A DNA stretch of 64,000 nucleotides from Marmoricola sp. OAE513 (GTDB taxonomy: Bacteria; Actinomycetota; Actinomycetes; Propionibacteriales; Nocardioidaceae). The notes under the pieces are model-generated. The model made no database searches, was not told the origin of the DNA, and saw only the letters and a list, made by a program, of their open reading frames with translations. The position numbers were made by a program, and so were the translations under genes. The stretch covers positions 1,550,001-1,614,000 of the forward strand of contig NZ_JBEPOC010000001.1 in NCBI RefSeq assembly GCF_040546585.1, written 5' to 3'. Within the stretch, counting starts at the first letter, position 1. Each line of letters starts with the position of its first letter. Below are positions 10,941 to 63,434 of this stretch, in pieces.

Positions 10941-11122
10941 CCCGGCGCGTGACGAACGAGGGTCGCGAGCGTCTGTACGTCGTGCCAGAGCCGGGAACGA
11001 CACCAGCGACCAAGCCCGTACGAGCGCCGTCCGTCAGCCGCCGAGCGACCGGACCGCGTCCACCAGCCAGGCATCCTGGCGACTTGCCTTGCCACGATGC
11101 TCAGGAGTGGCAGAATCCGGAC

Positions 11123-12538
11123 ATGCCCAAAGAGTCGGACGGAACCGGCAACGAACCGAACCTCGAGCTGCCGAGCATCTCGCTGGGGTTCGGTCGGCGG
11201 AAGAAGCGTTCCTCGAAGGGCGATGACGCCGACGCAGCGGCTCTGGAGCCCACCGAGCCCACCGAGGTAGCCGAAGAACCGGCTCCCGAGCCCGCCGAGG
11301 CACCCGCAACTGAGCCAGCCACTGAGCCGGCCGCTGAGGCGCCCGACGAGCCCGCGCCTCCCCGACCTCCGGCGCGTGCTCCTGCGCGCCCTGCAGCGCC
11401 CGCTGCGCCGTCCCGTGCGGCGCGTGCTGCCGGCGCACCCGCTGCGCGTCCGGCCGCTCGCCCTGCTGCCCGCCCCGCGGCTCGTCCTGCCAGTCCGGCG
11501 CCGGTGGTTCCACCCGTGGTCGTGACGCCCGCGAAGCCGGTTGACCCCCCGGCGGCGCCGGTGGTCGAGGCACCACTGGTCCCGGTCGTCGAGCCTGCCG
11601 AGGCACCTCGGCCCCCGGTCGAGAAGGCTGAGACCCCAGTCGTCGAGCCTGCCGAGACGGCTGGGGCCCCGGTCGTCGAGCCTGCCGAGAAGGCTGAGGC
11701 CCCGGTCGTCGAGCCTGCCGAGACGCCTCGGCCCCCGGTCGAGACGGCTGAGGCCCCGGTCGTCGAGCCTGCCGAGGCGGCTGAGGCCCCGGTCGTCGAG
11801 CCTGCCGAGACGCCAGCACCGGAGCCTGACCCCGAGCCCGAGCCGGTCGACGCCGCGACGGAAGCCGACGACCAGGCTGACACCGACGACGGGGTCGACG
11901 AGCCCGTCGTCGAGCTCCCCGCCGCTGCGAGCATCGCGCTGGAGACCCCGACCGCGATCCAGGACCCGGTCCTGGCCCGTGCTGCCGAGGGAGTCGCCAC
12001 CGTCCCCACGTCGCGCCGGGCGCACGCTCAGGCCCGCCGGGAGGCCAGCCAGCAGTCCAAGGCCGAGAAGGCCGCTCAGCGGGCCCGCGAACGCGGCCAG
12101 GGCGAGAGCAAGGGCCCGGCCGACCTGCTGGTCGAGAAGCTGCCCTCGATGAACCCTGCCGTTGCGGCGATCCTCACCGGACTCCTGTCCGGCCTGCTGT
12201 GCGTCGGCCTGACCTGGGGTGAGGTCGCCGGGTGCGAGGCACTGCGCGGCGACAACAACTGCAACGACGGCTTCGGCCTGCTCGCCCTGGTCGTCGTGCT
12301 CGCGATCGAGATCGTCGTCGGGGCCAGCCTGCTGCGTGCGTTCGGGGTCTCCGACCCGTTCAGCACCAGCTTCCTCGGCGTCAGCCTGGTCGCGATGGTC
12401 GTGATGCTGACCTTCATGGGTGACGACAACATGGTCTCGCCCGTGATGGTGCTGGTCATCCCCGGCCTGACCGCCGTGACGTTCCTGCTGTCGTGGTGGG
12501 TGACCGTGCGGTTCATCGAGGAACCTGCGGACTCCTAG
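11123..12538 (+). CDS. membrane protein with long Pro/Ala/Glu repeat region
   Basis: A 471-residue protein of two parts. Residues 1 to about 340 are low-complexity, rich in Pro, Ala, Glu and Val, including six VVEPAE repeats (about 155-229) and a basic stretch (RRAHAQARREASQQSKAEKAAQRARERGQ). From about 343 on there are four hydrophobic segments with acidic loops (GDDNMVSPV), a small integral-membrane domain. There is no signal peptide, so the repeat arm should be cytoplasmic. Start MPKESD at 11123 has CAGAAT 6 nt upstream, a weak leaderless-type -10; the longer frame from 10949 overlaps the tRNA terminator area. I do not recognise the family. The C-terminal domain might be a small DUF-type membrane module. 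Confidence 0.75.
   Translation: MPKESDGTGNEPNLELPSISLGFGRRKKRSSKGDDADAAALEPTEPTEVAEEPAPEPAEAPATEPATEPAAEAPDEPAPPRPPARAPARPAAPAAPSRAARAAGAPAARPAARPAARPAARPASPAPVVPPVVVTPAKPVDPPAAPVVEAPLVPVVEPAEAPRPPVEKAETPVVEPAETAGAPVVEPAEKAEAPVVEPAETPRPPVETAEAPVVEPAEAAEAPVVEPAETPAPEPDPEPEPVDAATEADDQADTDDGVDEPVVELPAAASIALETPTAIQDPVLARAAEGVATVPTSRRAHAQARREASQQSKAEKAAQRARERGQGESKGPADLLVEKLPSMNPAVAAILTGLLSGLLCVGLTWGEVAGCEALRGDNNCNDGFGLLALVVVLAIEIVVGASLLRAFGVSDPFSTSFLGVSLVAMVVMLTFMGDDNMVSPVMVLVIPGLTAVTFLLSWWVTVRFIEEPADS
11585..11809 (+). repeat. in-frame VVEPAE coding repeats
   Basis: Six copies of GTCGTCGAGCCTGCCGAG start at 11585, 11639, 11672, 11705, 11759 and 11792, spaced 54, 33, 33, 54 and 33 bp. All spacings are multiples of 3, so the array reads as VVEPAE separated by TAEAP-like or PRPPVE-like segments. 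The unit differs by one base from the core GTCGAGCCTGTCGAG of the dispersed element found elsewhere in this window. Confidence 0.9.
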
Positions 12539-31834: not shown

Positions 31835-32691
31835 CAGCCGGCGATCCGGACGGTCGTCGTCGAGCCCCAGAGCATCAGCGAGAGGAAGAAGTCGGCGATC
31901 ACGATGACCACCAGGGAGAGGCGGACCGCGCGGCCGACCGCGACGCCGACGCCGGCCGGTCCACCCTTGGCCGTGAAGCCGTAGTAGCAGCAGATCATCG
32001 TGAGGATGACCGAGAAGACGAGCACCTTGGCGAACGAGTAGAGGACGTCTATCGGTGGAAGGAACAGGTTGAAGTAGTGGTCGTAGGTGCCACCGGTCAG
32101 CCCGTAGTAGTGGATCGAGACCGCCTGGGTGGCGGCGTAGGTACCGATGAGGCCGACGAAGTAGAGCGGGATCACCGCGACCAGGGCGGCGATGACCCGG
32201 GTGCTCACCAGGTAGGGGATCGACCGGATCGCCATCACCTCGACGGCGTCGATCTCCTCGCTGATCCGCATCGCACCGAGCTGTGCGGTGAACCCGGCGC
32301 CGACCGTCGCGACCAGCGCGTTCGCCGCGACCAGCGGGGCGACCTCGCGCGTGTTGAAGTACGCCGACAGGAAGCCGACGTACGGCTGGATGCCAACCTG
32401 CTTGAGGCCCTGGTAGCCGACCAGGCCGACGACCGAGCCGACGGCGAGGACCTCGAAGATGAGGATGCCGAGGGTGCCCGCGACCAGCACGAGCGCACCC
32501 CGTCCGAGGCTGACCTCGGCAAGCTGTCGGTACACCTCGGCGCGGTACTTCACCAGCGTGCGCGGGATGCCCCCGAGCGCCTTGCCGTAGAACTGAACCT
32601 GGTCGCCGAGGTCGGCCAGGACGTCGTACGTCGCCTTCCACGCGCGGAAGACCGGTCCTCCCCCGTGGTCGAGCCTGTCGAGACCGGCCAT
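31834..32691 (-). CDS. yrbEB: MlaE/YrbE permease, second copy (YrbEB)
   Basis: A 285-residue integral-membrane permease of the MlaE family. It contains LGAMRISEEIDAVEVMAIRSIPYLVSTRV, the EExDALxVM coupling helix that touches the cytoplasmic ATPase, and five or so TM segments. The start shares one base with the YrbEA stop (TGATG). Residues 3-9 (GLDRLDH) are encoded by a copy of the GGTCGAGCCTGTCGAGACC element (32667-32685), so the extreme N-terminus looks acquired. No MceG-type ATPase gene is in the window. Confidence 0.9.
   Translation of the reverse strand: MAGLDRLDHGGGPVFRAWKATYDVLADLGDQVQFYGKALGGIPRTLVKYRAEVYRQLAEVSLGRGALVLVAGTLGILIFEVLAVGSVVGLVGYQGLKQVGIQPYVGFLSAYFNTREVAPLVAANALVATVGAGFTAQLGAMRISEEIDAVEVMAIRSIPYLVSTRVIAALVAVIPLYFVGLIGTYAATQAVSIHYYGLTGGTYDHYFNLFLPPIDVLYSFAKVLVFSVILTMICCYYGFTAKGGPAGVGVAVGRAVRLSLVVIVIADFFLSLMLWGSTTTVRIAG
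32667..32685 (+). repeat. dispersed GTCGAG element, copy inside yrbEB
   Basis: An exact GGTCGAGCCTGTCGAGACC on the plus strand, antisense to the first codons of yrbEB. The identical 19-mer, in the opposite orientation, occurs at 43454-43472 inside an unrelated gene. Confidence 0.85.
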
Positions 32692-35594: not shown

Positions 35595-35620
35595 TCTCTA
35601 CGGCGCGACCAGCGTCCGGC

Positions 35621-35808
35621 TGGTCGAGCTCAGGCCCGGGTGGTCGAGCTCAGGCCCGGGTGGTCGAGCTCAGGCCCGGGTGGTCGAGCTCAGGCCCGGG
35701 TGGTCGAGCTCAGGCCCGGGTGGTCGAGCCGTGAGGCCCGGGTGGTCGAGCCGTGAGGCCCGGGTGGTCGAGCCGTGAGGCCCGGGTGGTCGAGCGTAGT
35801 CGAGACCA
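35621..35808 (+). repeat. left tandem repeat array
   Basis: Five perfect copies of the 20-mer TGGTCGAGCTCAGGCCCGGG (35621-35720) are followed by three copies of a 22-bp variant (35721-35786), in which CCGTGA replaces TCA, and a terminal unit TGGTCGAGCGTAGTCGAGAC (from 35787). There are no unique spacers, so it is not a CRISPR. It ends one base before the nuclease stop codon. Confidence 0.95.
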
Positions 35809-35809
35809 A

Positions 35810-36127
35810 TCAGCCGCCCGGGTCCTCTTGCACCCCTCGCTTCATCCAGCCGTTACGCCCGCGGGCGAGGCCTGGGAGGTCGTCGTACCGACCCTCGATC
35901 AATGCTTCTCGCTTGGCGCGCGACCAGTTCTGGACCTTCTTCTCGAACGCGAATGCTTCGGGGATCGTCTCGAACTCCTCGGCCCACACCAGGACCACGG
36001 GAAGTCGTCGGCGGGTGTACTCCGCACCCATCCCCCTTTGGTGCTGGTAGACGCGAGCCTCGAGAAGCGTGGTGCTACCGACGTAGTAGCTGCCGTCTAG
36101 GCACTGAAGGATGTAGGTCCATGCCAT
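35810..36127 (-). CDS. GIY-YIG domain nuclease
   Basis: A 105-residue single-domain nuclease of the UPF0213/YhbQ-like class. The GIY and YIG elements appear as Y5-I-L and Y15-V-G. R25 and H29 lie in the first helix, the metal-ligand glutamate is E62 in FAFEKKVQNWSRAKREALI, and the family Asn is N67. All catalytic positions look intact, so the protein should be active. ATG at 36127 is preceded by an in-frame GTG (36130); no good Shine-Dalgarno is visible. It is fully enclosed by inverted copies of a 27-bp repeat. Family members cut branched or repeat-derived DNA; its own flanking hairpin-prone repeats are the obvious candidate substrate (inference). Confidence 0.88.
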   Translation of the reverse strand: MAWTYILQCLDGSYYVGSTTLLEARVYQHQRGMGAEYTRRRLPVVLVWAEEFETIPEAFAFEKKVQNWSRAKREALIEGRYDDLPGLARGRNGWMKRGVQEDPGG

Positions 36128-36214
36128 CACCGCAGCCTGCGGCGTCGTACGCCGCAGATCGAGGCCCCTGCCCGCCCTTGTGGAGGGGCAGGTCAGGGAT
36201 GAGCCTGGGCAGTT

Positions 36215-36321
36215 TGGTCTCGACTACGCTCGACCACCCGAGACCTACGCTCGACCACCCGAGACCTACGCTCGACCACCCGGACCTACGCTCGACCAGA
36301 CGGACCTACGCTCGACCAGAC
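36215..36321 (-). repeat. right tandem repeat array, inverted
   Basis: Five units of CTCGACCACCCGAGACCTACG type with periods of 20-22 bp. The first unit (36215-36236) is the exact reverse complement of 35787-35808. The last two units end in CAGACGG rather than CACCCGAG. The array runs straight into the truncated oxidoreductase fragment. Confidence 0.93.
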
Positions 36322-36455
36322 GGGTCGTGGGCGGCCTCGGCGACGAACAGGCCGCGCACCCCGCCGCGGGCCTCCGCAGACTGGACCAGCTCGACTATTT
36401 TCTCGGGTCCGCCGTGAAACGCGACATCTGTGGCTACGGTGGTTCTCCGGTCCAT
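36306..36455 (-). pseudogene. truncated LLM-class (F420-type) oxidoreductase N-terminus
   Basis: A 49-codon minus-strand frame from ATG 36455. It reads VAFHGGPEKIVELVQSAEA then LFVAEAAHDP, closely resembling the start of luciferase-like F420-dependent oxidoreductases, where AAHDP is normally followed by FLPLALAAEHT. Here the frame enters the repeat array right after HDP (codon 45), adds four array-encoded residues and stops at a TAG in the array. The rest of the gene is absent on either side of the GIY-YIG locus. This looks like a gene cut off by insertion or deletion at the array. Confidence 0.6.
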
Positions 36456-36918: not shown

Positions 36919-36983
36919 AGTTAGTCCCCACCGCAAAGCACCAGACATCTCCCTCCCGGGGTGCTTTGAGGTGGGGACTAACT
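36919..36983. terminator. large hairpin between convergent genes
   Basis: Arms AGTTAGTCCCCACC (36919-36932) and GGTGGGGACTAACT (36970-36983) pair over 14 bp. After a 2-nt bulge on each side, AAAGCACC (36935-36942) pairs with GGTGCTTT (36960-36967). With 22 bp of stem and no T-tract it could be a two-way terminator or a small palindromic element. Confidence 0.65.
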
Positions 36984-42827: not shown

Positions 42828-44099
42828 ATGTCTCCTGCCTTCCCCGACCACCCGGTCGCCACCGCCGAGCAGCACGCGCACGAGCTGGCGGCTCTCGAGC
42901 TGGTCGAGCACCCCACCGTGCGCGCCGCGTACCGCGACGTCGCCGAGACCTGGCTGGCCCGCGCCAAGCCCAGCGACGCGATGCGCGAGCGCTTCAACGC
43001 GGCGTACGAGGAGGTGATGTTCTCGGCGGCTGTGTGGTCCAGCAACCAGGACCCGTTGCGACCGAAGGTCACCACGATCACCCGGCTCGCGCACGAGGTC
43101 GAGGGCGTCCGGATCCCCGGCACCCGCTGGGGCATCGACAACCCGGACTCGGTCTACCGGGTCATCCCGATCTCGGGCGAGGAGAAGTACGTCATCCGCG
43201 GCCGGGTCGGCGAGCACCGGATGACGGAGAACTACTTCACCCTCTGGAACGCCCACATGGGGACCATCGACGTCGTCGACGGACGCCGGATGGAGGTCGC
43301 CCCCGACGGCACCTACGAGATCACCGTCGACGCCAGCGAGAAGAACGGGCGCACCAACCACATCCAGTCCACACCCGAGGCGCACGAGTTCTACATCCGC
43401 GACGTGCTCCTCGACTGGTCGCTGGACCAGCCGAACGAGATCACCATCGAGCGGGTCTCGACAGGCTCGACCACCGGTGACCGCCCCGCCCTGACCCTGG
43501 ACGAGCAGGCCGAGAAGACCGCCGCGATGATGGCGCACTTCGCCGACTTCACCGGCAAGCTCTCCTACGGGATGTCCAAGTCACCCGCGAACCACTTCTC
43601 GCTGGCGTGGAACTCCAACCAGCACGGGGCGATGGTCGGCCAGGTCTACGTCGCCGGGCGCTTCGACCTCGAGCCCGGCCAGGCGTTCGTGGTCGACGTC
43701 AGCGACGGCGGCGCGGAGTACTTCACCGTCCCGCTCGGCAACCTGTGGGGCACCACGCTGGACATCTACGGCAGCACGAGCTCGCTGAACAAGGCTCAGT
43801 CGAAACCGAACGGGGACGGCACCTACACCTACGTCATCGGCCCGGAGAACCCCGGCGTCCACAACTGGATCGACTCGGCCGGCCTGCGCGAGGGCTTCCT
43901 GACGCTGCGGATGGCGGAGTTCGGTCCGGGCGGCGCCACCGAGGACCTCGCCGCCACCGGACGCGTCATCGACCTCGACGACCTCGACAAGGAGCTCCCC
44001 GACATCGCCCGGATCGACGAGGCCGGCCGGGCCGACCAGCTCGCCGAACGTCAGACCGGCTACACGAAGAACCGCCTCCCCGAGGGAGTCGTGGCATGA
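42828..44099 (+). CDS. DUF1214 domain-containing protein
   Basis: A 423-residue protein. The C-terminal half fits DUF1214 (FSLAWNSNQHGAMVGQVYVAGRFDLEPGQAFVVDV, YGSTSSLNKAQSKPNGDGTYTYVIGPENPGVHNWIDSAGLREG). The N-terminal half resembles the matching beta-rich domain of the DUF1214/DUF1254 group. It is the first gene of an operon with two SDR dehydrogenases, so a role in catabolism of a lipophilic compound is likely. Residues 210-218 (VSTGSTTGD) come from an inserted copy of the dispersed GTCGAG element. Leaderless TAGCGT promoter. ATGA overlap to the next gene. Confidence 0.82.
   Translation: MSPAFPDHPVATAEQHAHELAALELVEHPTVRAAYRDVAETWLARAKPSDAMRERFNAAYEEVMFSAAVWSSNQDPLRPKVTTITRLAHEVEGVRIPGTRWGIDNPDSVYRVIPISGEEKYVIRGRVGEHRMTENYFTLWNAHMGTIDVVDGRRMEVAPDGTYEITVDASEKNGRTNHIQSTPEAHEFYIRDVLLDWSLDQPNEITIERVSTGSTTGDRPALTLDEQAEKTAAMMAHFADFTGKLSYGMSKSPANHFSLAWNSNQHGAMVGQVYVAGRFDLEPGQAFVVDVSDGGAEYFTVPLGNLWGTTLDIYGSTSSLNKAQSKPNGDGTYTYVIGPENPGVHNWIDSAGLREGFLTLRMAEFGPGGATEDLAATGRVIDLDDLDKELPDIARIDEAGRADQLAERQTGYTKNRLPEGVVA
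43454..43472 (-). repeat. dispersed GTCGAG element, copy inside DUF1214 gene
   Basis: The exact reverse complement of GGTCGAGCCTGTCGAGACC. It is in-frame within the coding sequence and contributes V-S-T-G-S-T-T, the same peptide produced by a related copy in the carboxylase gene at 62595-62613. Confidence 0.88.
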
Positions 44100-61440: not shown

Positions 61441-63434
61441 GCTTCTTCTCCTTCATCGGACGAAACCACAGCGAGCACGTCGCCCGCAGAAACCTGCTGG
61501 CCCACGGTCACGGCGATCTCCACGACACCGTCGCCCGGGGCACTGATCGAGTGCTGCATCTTCATCGCCTCGAGGACGAGCAGCGTCTGCCCCGCCTCGA
61601 CGCTCGCGCCCGTCTCCACCGGGACCGCGATCACGGTGCCGGGCATCGGCGCCAGCAGCGACCCGGCGCTGACCTGTTCCGCCGGGTCGACGAAGCGAGG
61701 CACCACCTTGTACGACGCGGAGCCGAGCCCCGAGTCGACGTGCACGCTGTCACCGGCGATGCAGACCGCGTGCACGACCCGCACGCCGCCGACCTCGAGC
61801 ACGACCTCGTCGGTGCCGGCCGCGAGAACCGCAGTGCCGTCGGTCAGCTCGTAACCGTCGCGGCCGCCGTACCAGGTGACGACGACGTCGTCTCCCCCGG
61901 TGGTCGGCGCCAGCGAGGTCTGCTGCGGCTGCGAGACGACGTTGCGCCAGGCGACCGGGATCCCCTGCTGGACCACGCGGGCGGAGCGGTCACGCTCGGC
62001 GAGGGCGATCGCTGCTGCCTGCGCAGCGCTCGTCGTGTCCGGGGTGGTCCCGGCCAGGTCGAAGGAGCCGAGGAAGTCGGTGCTCACGTCGCCGGCGAGC
62101 ACGTCGTCGTCGCGCAGCAACCGCACCAGCAGGTCCCGGTTGGTGACCAGGCCGTGGATCCGCGCACGCTCCAGGATGCCCGCGAGGGTGCGGAAGGCCG
62201 CCGCGCGGGTGGGGCCCCAGACGATCACCTTGGCGAGCATCGCGTCGTAGTGCGTGCTGACCTCGCTCCCGGAGACGAAGCCGCTGTCGAGCCGGCTGCC
62301 GTAGGTGAGCAGCTGGTGGAACTCCCCCTCGCAGTCGATCTCGAAGGTGTCCAGGACACCGCTCTGCGGCTGGTAGTCCGCCGCCGGGTCCTCGGCGTAC
62401 AGGCGCACCTCGACGGCGTGGCCGCGCGGGTGCGTCGGAGCGTTCGGCACCGTGCCGCCCTCGGCGACCCGGATCTGCGCCTCGACCAGGTCGATGCCGA
62501 AGACGGCCTCGGTGACCGGGTGCTCGACCTGGAGACGGGTGTTCATCTCCAGGAACGAGACCTTGGCGCCTCCGGCGGTTGAGCCGTCCCCGGTGGTTGA
62601 GCCTGTCGAAACCATGAACTCGACGGTCCCGGCGCCGACGTACCCGATCGCCCCGGCCGCGAGCCGCGCGCCCTCGTGCAGGGTCGCGCGGGTCTCGTCA
62701 CTGAGTCCGAACGCCGGCGCCTCCTCCACGACCTTCTGGTGGCGCCGCTGCAGCGAGCAGTCACGCTCGCCGAGGACCAACACGTTGCCGTGGGTGTCGC
62801 CGACCACCTGCACCTCGACGTGGCGCCCGTTCTCCAGGTACGGCTCGCAGAAGACGGTGGCGTCGCCGAAGGCGCTCGCGGCCTCGTCGGAAGCGAGCTT
62901 CACCTCGCCGGCCAGAGCGGCCAGGTCGCGCACGATCCGCATACCGCGGCCGCCGCCACCCGCCGAGGCCTTCACCAGCAGGGGCAGGTCCGCCTCGGTC
63001 GCGTCCGCCGGGTCGATCTGGCCGAACACCGGGACGCCGGCCGCGGCCATCAGCTCCTTCGCCGCGATCTTCGAACCCATCGCGTCGATCGACTCCGGGG
63101 TCGGCCCGATCCAGGTCAGGCCGGCGGCGATGACGTCGCGCGCGAACCCGGCGTTCTCGGACAGGAAGCCGTACCCGGGGTGGATCGCGTCGGCTCCGGC
63201 CTTCTTCGCGGCCTCGATGACGAGGTCGCCGCGCAGGTACGTCTCGGCCGGCGTGCTGCCCGGCAGCCGTACGGCGAGGTCCGCCTCGCCGACGAACGGC
63301 AGCCCGGCGTCCGCGTCGGAGTAGACCGCGACGGTGCCGACGCCGAGGCGACGGGCGGTGGTGAAGACGCGTCGGGCGATCTCACCCCGGTTCGCGACGA
63401 GAATTCTGGTGATGGTCGTCATGTCTCCACTCAC
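61437..63434 (-). CDS. acyl-CoA carboxylase alpha subunit (biotin carboxylase + BCCP)
   Basis: A 665-residue two-domain subunit. The biotin-carboxylase half begins ITRILVANRGEIARRV, with ATP-grasp KASAGGGGRGM and EMNTRLQVEHPVTE. The C-terminal biotinyl domain holds EAMKMQHSI with the biotinylated lysine K625. Together with the beta subunit it carboxylates a short or branched acyl-CoA. An insertion VSTGSTTGDGSTAGGA between EFM and KVSFLEMN is absent from typical biotin carboxylases and is coded by the dispersed element. GTG 63434 (overlapping the beta stop) or ATG 63422 could start it. Confidence 0.92.
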   Translation of the reverse strand: MSGDMTTITRILVANRGEIARRVFTTARRLGVGTVAVYSDADAGLPFVGEADLAVRLPGSTPAETYLRGDLVIEAAKKAGADAIHPGYGFLSENAGFARDVIAAGLTWIGPTPESIDAMGSKIAAKELMAAAGVPVFGQIDPADATEADLPLLVKASAGGGGRGMRIVRDLAALAGEVKLASDEAASAFGDATVFCEPYLENGRHVEVQVVGDTHGNVLVLGERDCSLQRRHQKVVEEAPAFGLSDETRATLHEGARLAAGAIGYVGAGTVEFMVSTGSTTGDGSTAGGAKVSFLEMNTRLQVEHPVTEAVFGIDLVEAQIRVAEGGTVPNAPTHPRGHAVEVRLYAEDPAADYQPQSGVLDTFEIDCEGEFHQLLTYGSRLDSGFVSGSEVSTHYDAMLAKVIVWGPTRAAAFRTLAGILERARIHGLVTNRDLLVRLLRDDDVLAGDVSTDFLGSFDLAGTTPDTTSAAQAAAIALAERDRSARVVQQGIPVAWRNVVSQPQQTSLAPTTGGDDVVVTWYGGRDGYELTDGTAVLAAGTDEVVLEVGGVRVVHAVCIAGDSVHVDSGLGSASYKVVPRFVDPAEQVSAGSLLAPMPGTVIAVPVETGASVEAGQTLLVLEAMKMQHSISAPGDGVVEIAVTVGQQVSAGDVLAVVSSDEGEEA
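62595..62613 (+). repeat. dispersed GTCGAG element variant inside carboxylase gene
   Basis: GGTTGAGCCTGTCGAAACC, a two-base symmetric variant of the 19-mer at 32667 and 43454. A partial GGTTGAGCC precedes it near 62578. Read in the carboxylase frame it gives the V-S-T-G-S-T-T peptide. Confidence 0.85.

What the first reader, a model, noticed from the sequence alone, without database searches (positions are those of the whole stretch)
35621..36321. GIY-YIG nuclease gene enclosed by mirror-image repeat arrays: possible autonomous repeat-mobilising element
A single intact GIY-YIG nuclease gene (105 aa, with R25, H29, E62 and N67 present) is enclosed by 27-bp perfect inverted repeats (35783-35809 / 36214-36240). 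These are the inner units of two tandem arrays, 8 plus 1 units on the left and 5 on the right, in opposite orientation. No transposase is present. Related short elements are scattered elsewhere in the window, including in coding sequences. By analogy to REP elements and their RAYT transposases, the nuclease may act on the repeats it is flanked by and help spread or expand them. I do not know of a described system of this form.
Basis: partly seen in the sequence, partly recalled or inferred. Interest (0 to 1): 0.88.

Follow-up and report, generated by a model that had tools for sequence, protein, structure and literature searches.

The report
GIY-YIG nuclease with matched hairpin repeats
A tiny DNA-cutting enzyme gene sits between mirror-image copies of a short DNA hairpin, and across related bacteria the enzyme and its matching hairpin family tend to come and go together, which suggests a small selfish system in which the enzyme helps its own repeats to multiply.

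Summary
In detail: a 105/106-aa GIY-YIG gene lies between 27-bp perfect inverted repeats that cap two mirror-image arrays. It is not a one-off. A second copy in the same genome (64% identical) is enclosed by arrays of a different repeat. Of 137 homologous loci, 113 have strong inverted flank repeats, against 0 of 411 control positions. Most repeats share one hairpin plan (stem, GA/GA, G-C, covarying X-Y pair, loop) and face the gene. In the family, 74 of 88 genomes with the nuclease have 35 or more copies of the two main hairpin types, against 4 of 54 without; the expanded type is the type beside the gene, and repeat type follows protein clade. The unit moves: 8 of 8 comparable relatives have an empty site for the second copy, and in one genome the hairpin-nuclease-hairpin unit occupies 4 of 8 paralogous DUF222-HNH genes. 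REP-type transposases (Y1_Tnp) are absent from 146 of 148 genomes. I recall, but could not read, the published 'Ssn' family of ssDNA-specific GIY-YIG nucleases that cut repeats near their genes; this is probably a large, more clearly mobile branch. Activity is untested. Verdict: real; new variant of a known kind.

The parts
35616..35782 (+). left tandem array of 5' half-units (GGTGGTCGAGC...; 20- and 22-bp periods), facing the gene
35783..35809 (+). left inner inverted repeat, contains the full hairpin GGTC-GAG-CGTAGT-CGA-GACC (35788-35807)
35810..36130 (-). GIY-YIG nuclease gene (106 aa from GTG, 105 aa from ATG at 36127); its stop codon abuts the left inverted repeat
36131..36213 (-). 83-bp leader between the nuclease start and the right inverted repeat; no sigma-70-like promoter found by simple scan
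36214..36240 (-). right inner inverted repeat (perfect 27-bp match to the left one), full hairpin 36216-36235
36241..36323 (-). right tandem array of 5' half-units (GGGTGGTCGAGCGTAGGTC..., 20/21-bp period), facing the gene
32667..32685 (+). dispersed hairpin of GGTC type (GGTCGAGCCTGTCGAGACC), lying inside a permease-like reading frame on the minus strand
43454..43472 (-). dispersed hairpin of GGTC type
62595..62613 (+). dispersed hairpin of GGTT type (GGTTGAGCCTGTCGAAACC)
11641..11812 (+). tandem CGTC-type hairpins (CGTCGAGCCTGCCGAGACG), the type of the genome's second nuclease, inside ORF 10949-12538

Best explanation
The locus is one member of a widespread family of small GIY-YIG nucleases, each encoded between inverted copies of its own hairpin repeat. 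Shown by comparison: the nuclease and a sequence-matched hairpin family belong together, and the hairpin-nuclease-hairpin unit has entered new sites. Inferred: the nuclease recognises its cognate hairpin, most likely when it is single-stranded (lagging strand, uptake, repair), and cuts it. The host repairs the break by copying from other repeat-bearing sequence. This expands arrays in tandem, seeds repeats elsewhere, and sometimes copies the whole unit, as a homing endonuclease does. It is a homing-like, repeat-driven selfish element, not a transposase with a covalent intermediate.
For: Inverted flank repeats score >=40 in 113 of 137 loci, 0 of 411 same-locus controls, 63 of 600 mispaired flanks. 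Gene-facing hairpins on both sides in 115 of 137 loci; 5.6 per kb near the gene against 0.30 to 0.36 per kb farther than 900 bp. In segments chosen without any hairpin assumption, the 4-bp stem outside GA/GA is complementary in 106 of 122 loci, in 1 to 18 of 122 when slid; X-Y complementary in 259 of 291 cores. Copy number: 74 of 88 genomes with the nuclease have >=35 hairpins, 4 of 54 without (Fisher p 1e-20); medians differ the same way within genera g1, g4 and g12. The expanded type matches the flanking type (p 1e-9 and 1e-5). Repeat type tracks protein clade: 23 changes against 50 shuffled; within one genus 8 against 23.7. In genomes with several nucleases, a locus's two flanks match each other better than any other locus's in 41 of 46. 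Mobility: the second copy's site is empty in 8 of 8 relatives with the same neighbours; in genome G102 the roughly 470-bp unit is 96.6-99.4% identical in 4 of 8 DUF222-HNH paralogues whose upstream flanks fall into two groups only 82.8-88.7% identical to each other, both groups holding intact and occupied copies. The second repeat type has 194 copies in the window's genome, reversed control 5. Y1_Tnp transposases are absent in 146 of 148 genomes.
Against: No biochemical evidence here; co-occurrence does not prove that the nuclease makes the repeats. G061 has 146 GGTC-type copies and only a doubtful nuclease-like match (E 0.05). Nine genomes with the nuclease have fewer than 25 copies of the two counted types, though several carry other stem types. 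In G102 the unit replaces some 460-490 bp rather than inserting cleanly, and spread by ordinary gene conversion of the host gene is not excluded: downstream flanks of three of the four occupied copies are somewhat alike (92.5-94.4%). In 188.6 kb aligned between two close genomes, neither of the 2 indels of at least 15 bp was a hairpin (few repeats there, little power). A simple DNA energy model folds 3 of 7 tested hairpins clearly better than shuffles; the window's own two repeat types are not among the three. Of six homologous loci fetched from plasmids and a phage only one (Sphingomonas L220) has the motif.
Confidence: 0.55

Rival explanations
1. Host-serving Ssn-type nuclease: the enzyme cuts single-stranded repeat DNA to modulate DNA uptake or recombination, and the repeats are kept as its recognition marks; there is no selfish spread.
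For: The recalled Ssn work in Neisseria describes repeat-specific ssDNA cleavage that modulates transformation (recalled, not read). The tight nuclease-repeat match fits this as well.
Against: Patchy presence (94 of 148 genomes, up to 5 matches each), broken copies (4 of 144 unique loci have an internal stop), empty sites and presence inside coding genes look like an element rather than a conserved host function.
Confidence: 0.2
2. Repeats first: the hairpins are independent genome repeats, and the nuclease gene is tolerated or inserted preferentially among them as a hitchhiker.
For: G061 has many repeats without a clear nuclease. Hairpins exist at many sites with no nuclease.
Against: Own flanks match each other better than those of any other fetched nuclease locus in the same genome in 41 of 46. 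Most genomes without the gene are near background. Arrays on the two sides are mirror images, not one array split by an insertion.
Confidence: 0.12
3. Repeat guard: the nuclease removes or resolves hairpins that stall replication, so repeat-rich genomes keep it; causality is reversed.
For: The copy-number correlation alone does not give direction.
Against: Does not explain why the gene itself sits between matched inverted copies or why the unit is copied as a block.
Confidence: 0.1
4. The repeats are REPs moved by a RAYT/IS200-type tyrosine transposase, and the nuclease is a bystander.
For: Architecture resembles REP-RAYT units (PMC3733652, section 16).
Against: Y1_Tnp is found in 2 of 148 genomes only, G024 and G029, both without the nuclease and with background repeat numbers of 17 and 13.
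Confidence: 0.02
5. Chance, low-complexity GC-rich sequence or assembly artefact.
For: High G+C and short motifs.
Against: 0 of 411 controls reach the score; reversed-pattern controls in the window's genome give 0 to 5; independent genomes agree.
Confidence: 0.01

Closest known systems
Ssn family: site-specific single-stranded-DNA GIY-YIG nucleases (Neisseria meningitidis Ssn and its NTS repeat; Nature Communications 2025; recalled, nothing of it seen here)
   Same: Small stand-alone GIY-YIG protein; a short repeated sequence around the gene and in many copies in the genome; many homologues with different cognate sequences (all from recall).
   Different: Here: mirror-image arrays with a GA/GA hairpin plan in Actinobacteria, clade-matched repeat types, copy-number association across 148 genomes, and evidence that the unit moves. 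I do not know which of these points the Ssn paper already makes. Cleavage untested here.
REP elements and RAYT (REP-associated tyrosine transposase) 'REPtrons'
   Same: A single gene flanked by short hairpin repeats that are dispersed through the genome; species with several repeat families have repeat-specific units (PMC3733652, section 16 read).
   Different: The enzyme is a GIY-YIG nuclease, not an HUH tyrosine transposase; Y1_Tnp is absent in 146 of 148 genomes.
CGTC-tagged REP superfamily (Di Nocera et al. 2013, PMC3733652)
   Same: CGTC stands directly before the hairpin beside GIY-YIG genes in L037 (flavobacterial MAG), L038 (alphaproteobacterial MAG), L039 (Bradyrhizobium) and L040 (Flavobacterium), and before a GAG half-unit in L033; that paper says CGTC REPs lack a dedicated transposase.
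   Different: Their consensus has 8-9 bp stems and 4-5 base loops; ours has a GA/GA interruption and often an inner stem. Four other non-actinobacterial loci (L034, L035, L036, L041) lack the tag.
Free-standing GIY-YIG homing endonucleases (recalled)
   Same: Same nuclease fold; unit found at near-identical junctions in paralogous targets in G102.
   Different: Recognition would be of the element's own repeat, not of the empty target; the repeats themselves are numerous.
UPF0213 GIY-YIG proteins (PDB 1zg2, 1ywl)
   Same: Closest solved sequences, E 4.5e-21 and 8.4e-17.
   Different: Labelled 'hypothetical' in the PDB; I did not examine their flanks.

Membership tests
GIY-YIG nuclease superfamily | GIY-YIG domain with the catalytic residues | tested here: met
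   PF01541 E 6e-17; E63 invariant, R26 and H30 at least 90% conserved in 19 rows, of which L042 looks degraded; the two tyrosines are in the consensus but not in every row
Ssn (site-specific ssDNA nucleases) | cognate repeat around the gene and dispersed in the genome (definition from recall) | tested here: met
Ssn (site-specific ssDNA nucleases) | cleavage of single-stranded DNA only, at the repeat (from recall) | not testable with these tools
   needs purified protein
Ssn (site-specific ssDNA nucleases) | same protein clade as Neisseria Ssn | not tested
REP/RAYT | HUH tyrosine transposase (Y1_Tnp) beside the repeat | tested here: not met
   none in the window's genome, 2 of 148 genomes in the family
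REP/RAYT | gene flanked by inverted hairpin repeats also dispersed genome-wide | tested here: met
CGTC-tagged REP superfamily | unpaired CGTC tag at one end of the hairpin | tested here: inconclusive
   before a detected hairpin in L037-L040, before a half-unit in L033, not in L034, L035, L036, L041; not counted in Actinobacteria
Homing endonuclease | copying of the gene into an allelic or homologous empty site | tested here: inconclusive
   G102: 4 occupied and 4 intact paralogues, unit more alike than flanks, but some 460-490 bp of target replaced and ordinary gene conversion not excluded
Anti-phage defence system | match to a known defence family | tested here: not met
   PADLOC-DB of 2023, no hit

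The most novel reading that the evidence does not exclude
A general class of autonomous bacterial selfish element: a GIY-YIG nuclease flanked by its own GA/GA hairpins, which spreads both single repeats (REP-like) and the whole unit (homing-like) by cutting hairpin DNA and using host repair. It would supply the missing enzyme for large REP families that have no transposase, including CGTC-tagged REPs.
Probability: 0.45. Interest if true: 0.87.

Novelty: new variant of a known kind. Interest (0 to 1): 0.72.

Why it matters
Short palindromic repeats fill many bacterial genomes, and for one large superfamily a 2013 survey found no mobilising enzyme (PMC3733652; abstract, passages and section 16 seen). 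Here a small nuclease predicts, with few exceptions, which repeat a genome carries and whether it is abundant. That turns 'what spreads these repeats?' into a test with one protein and one oligonucleotide. It also gives more than a hundred natural nuclease-repeat pairs from which recognition rules could be learned, useful for sequence-specific single-strand cutting tools.

Tried and rejected
Chance and low complexity: rejected (controls; reversed patterns). RAYT/IS200 as driver: rejected. Phage or plasmid cargo: plasmid hits in only 4 of 72,556 records in each of two searches, phage hits in 23 of 50,697 records, all under 60% identity; of six such loci fetched, five (two Methylobacterium, Sphingomonas paeninsulae, Radiobacillus, one Rhizobium phage) show no hairpin and one (Sphingomonas L220) does. 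Known RNA family, terminator or promoter at the locus: none found. Defence or PHROG family: none. Empty site for the window's own copy: the orthologue of the neighbouring epimerase-like gene in G006 (L170, 74% identical) is followed by another reading frame and then a hydrolase 49% identical to the window's, with no hairpin between; the one in G005 (L169, 76%) has different neighbours downstream and a single hairpin-like match in the stretch held. Suggestive only. Strain-level repeat gain or loss: one pair of close genomes, 188.6 kb aligned, 2 indels, neither a hairpin; too few repeats there to judge. Structure prediction was not run, as the Pfam and PDB sequence matches settle the fold.

Rows left out: of the matches, several fragments, contig-edge matches and part of the 79-residue subfamily were not fetched. 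166 loci were loaded, 144 unique nuclease loci kept, 137 with full 350-bp flanks. The 6 genomes with only the 79-residue subfamily were set apart in the copy-number test. Stem types seen fewer than 3 times were dropped from the tree counts. G102 was left out of the same-genome test.

Full report
What is in the window. The gene at 35810-36130 (minus strand) encodes a 106-aa (GTG) or 105-aa (ATG) protein with a GIY-YIG domain, PF01541 E 6e-17. It lies between perfect 27-bp inverted repeats at 35783-35809 and 36214-36240. Outward of these run tandem arrays in opposite orientation, 8.7 copies on the left and 4.6 on the right by TRF. The stop codon abuts the left repeat. Only the innermost unit on each side is a complete hairpin; the others are its 5' half.

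The genome has a second case. The 3.89-Mb genome holds one other clear homologue, 64% identical, between a CheX-like gene and flgB (gene names are my reading). It too is enclosed by mirror-image arrays, but of another repeat, CGTCGAGCTTGCCGAGACG. That repeat has 194 copies in the genome within 2 mismatches, reversed-pattern control 5. The window's own repeat has 19 within 3 mismatches, the two at the locus included, control 0.

The association is general. Homologues were collected by protein alone: 20 named loci, 15 of 24 genomes of the genus, own included, 94 of 148 of the family, up to 5 matches per genome, with most further loci fetched by place. A protein search scored 7,998 candidates (a capped set) and 7,993 passed E 1e-5. 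Of 137 loci with full flanks, 113 score 40 or more for an inverted repeat between the two flanks; so do 0 of 411 control positions in the same loci and 63 of 600 mispaired flanks. The mispaired figure is not zero, as expected if unlinked loci share repeat types.

One hairpin plan. The repeats differ in sequence but mostly share stem-GAG...CGA-stem'. Such hairpins occur at 5.6 per kb facing the gene on either side, 1.7 to 2.0 per kb in the other orientation, and 0.30 to 0.36 per kb beyond 900 bp; 123 of 137 loci have one facing the gene upstream, 122 downstream, 115 on both sides. In flank segments chosen only by inverted repetition, the 4-bp stem is fully complementary in 106 of 122 loci, against 1 to 18 of 122 when one arm is slid by 1 to 3 bases. 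The base after GAG pairs with the base two before CGA in 259 of 291 cores of at least 24 bases (identical cores counted once per flank); base composition alone would give about a third (my arithmetic). Read together: outer stem, GA opposite GA (as in tandem sheared G.A pairs, recalled), a G-C pair, a one-base bulge, a covarying X-Y pair, then a loop or inner stem. Related loci are counted as separate, so these are counts of sequences and not of events. A DNA energy model folds 3 of 7 examples clearly better than shuffles; the window's own repeat (z -0.97) and the second repeat (z 0.76) are not among them. The GA/GA reading rests on covariation, not on energy.

An internal control. A side clade of the tree with 97% SH-aLRT support (L161-L166, genus g12, 46-54% identical to the window's protein) lacks the hairpins in 5 of 6 members; the sixth has one short match of another kind.

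Nuclease predicts repeats. I counted GGTCGAG-N5..35-TCGAGACC and GGTTGAG-N5..35-TCGAAACC in 148 family genomes. Genomes with the main-family nuclease (88) have a median of 86.5 copies, those without any match (54) 15; 35 or more copies occur in 74 of 88 against 4 of 54. The medians differ the same way within genera: g1 75 (11 genomes) against 18 (6), g4 95.5 (48) against 19 (17), g12 51 (17) against 15 (14). Genomes whose flanks are GGTC-only (35) have median 65 GGTC and 1 GGTT copies; GGTT-only (21) have 27 and 65; both types (16) 54 and 56.5; neither (13) 15 and 2. Exceptions: G061 has 146 GGTC-type copies and only a match of E 0.05 to the nuclease profile; G004, G080 and G140, without any match to that profile, also pass 35 copies; nine carriers have fewer than 25, several of which use other stems such as CCTT, CCCT or GATC.

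Type follows protein clade, not only genome. On a protein tree the stem type (115 loci) changes 23 times, shuffled mean 50 (minimum 41); within genus g4 alone (65 loci) 8 times, shuffled 23.7 (minimum 17); the X-Y type behaves alike. The tree has few columns and many weak forks. In 20 genomes with two or more fetched loci, a locus's own two flanks match better than its flank matches any other locus's in 41 of 46.

The unit moves. Of 13 relatives with flgB, 8 have the CheX-like gene beside it in the stretch held; their spacers are 137 to 267 bp, against 841 bp in the window's genome, and none holds a nuclease or hairpin. In genome G102, 8 paralogous DUF222-HNH genes are at least 91% identical over the query (family name is my reading). 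Four are intact, four carry hairpin-nuclease-hairpin at near-identical junctions in place of some 460-490 bp. The unit is 96.6-99.4% identical among the four. The upstream flanks form two groups, 82.8-88.7% identical to each other, each with occupied and intact members; the downstream flanks do not group so clearly (87.5-94.4%), and three of the occupied copies are slightly closer there. So the unit, perhaps with some downstream sequence, was copied between diverged paralogues. One of the four has a frameshifted nuclease. A related hairpin lies farther upstream in seven of the eight (all but L139).

Mechanism. Shown: co-occurrence, matching, and movement of the unit. Inferred: cutting of the cognate repeat, preferably as a single-stranded hairpin, and spread by host repair. 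A GIY-YIG enzyme hydrolyses DNA and keeps no covalent intermediate (established knowledge), so a homing-like copying route is likelier than peel-and-paste. RAYT-type transposases are not available: Y1_Tnp in 2 of 148 genomes, neither with the nuclease.

Known or new. Paper searches for GIY-YIG with REP terms, RAYT, hairpin words, Ssn and dRS3, and for repeat words listed no paper on such a pair by title; for only the top 20 of 133, 20 of 530 and 12 of 18 were listed. I recall a 2025 paper on Ssn, ssDNA-specific GIY-YIG nucleases of Neisseria and many other bacteria that recognise a repeat around their genes; it was not found in the library, so overlap is unmeasured. Di Nocera 2013 (PMC3733652: abstract, passages, section 16 seen) states that CGTC REPs lack a dedicated transposase. 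CGTC stands directly before the hairpin beside GIY-YIG genes in L037-L040, and before a half-unit in L033, which makes this nuclease family a natural candidate. Of RepRanger 2025 (PMC12306157) I saw two passages, neither on a nuclease.

Noticed in passing
window 11581-11838, ORF 10949-12538 (+): A coding tandem repeat (...APVVEPAEKAEAPVVEPAE...) is made of the second nuclease's hairpin repeat (CGTCGAGCCTGCCGAGACG), so the repeat family has expanded inside a reading frame.
   Followed up: partly
window 32667-32685: A GGTC-type hairpin reads as MAGLDRLDHGG inside, perhaps at the start of, a permease-like frame on the minus strand.
   Followed up: no
genome G102: L213-L217, L153, L157: Seven of eight DUF222-HNH paralogues carry the same hairpin type farther upstream (not found for L139), which hints that DUF222-HNH genes may themselves be associated with these repeats.
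   Followed up: partly
G061: 146 copies of the GGTC-type hairpin but only a doubtful nuclease-like match: a possible recent loss.
   Followed up: partly
window 36919-36983: A 24-bp inverted repeat, 96% complementary with 17 nt between the arms (AGTTAGTCCCCACC...), of another kind than the hairpins.
   Followed up: no
L220 (Sphingomonas parapaucimobilis plasmid): GIY-YIG gene between nrdR and an RNA methyltransferase gene with hairpins GGCT-GAGCGAAGTCGA-AGCC facing it on both sides.
   Followed up: partly
L170 (genome G006): Beside the orthologue of the epimerase-like neighbour lies a frame absent from the window's locus, where the nuclease unit and a short ORF stand instead; possibly another replacement like that in G102.
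   Followed up: partly
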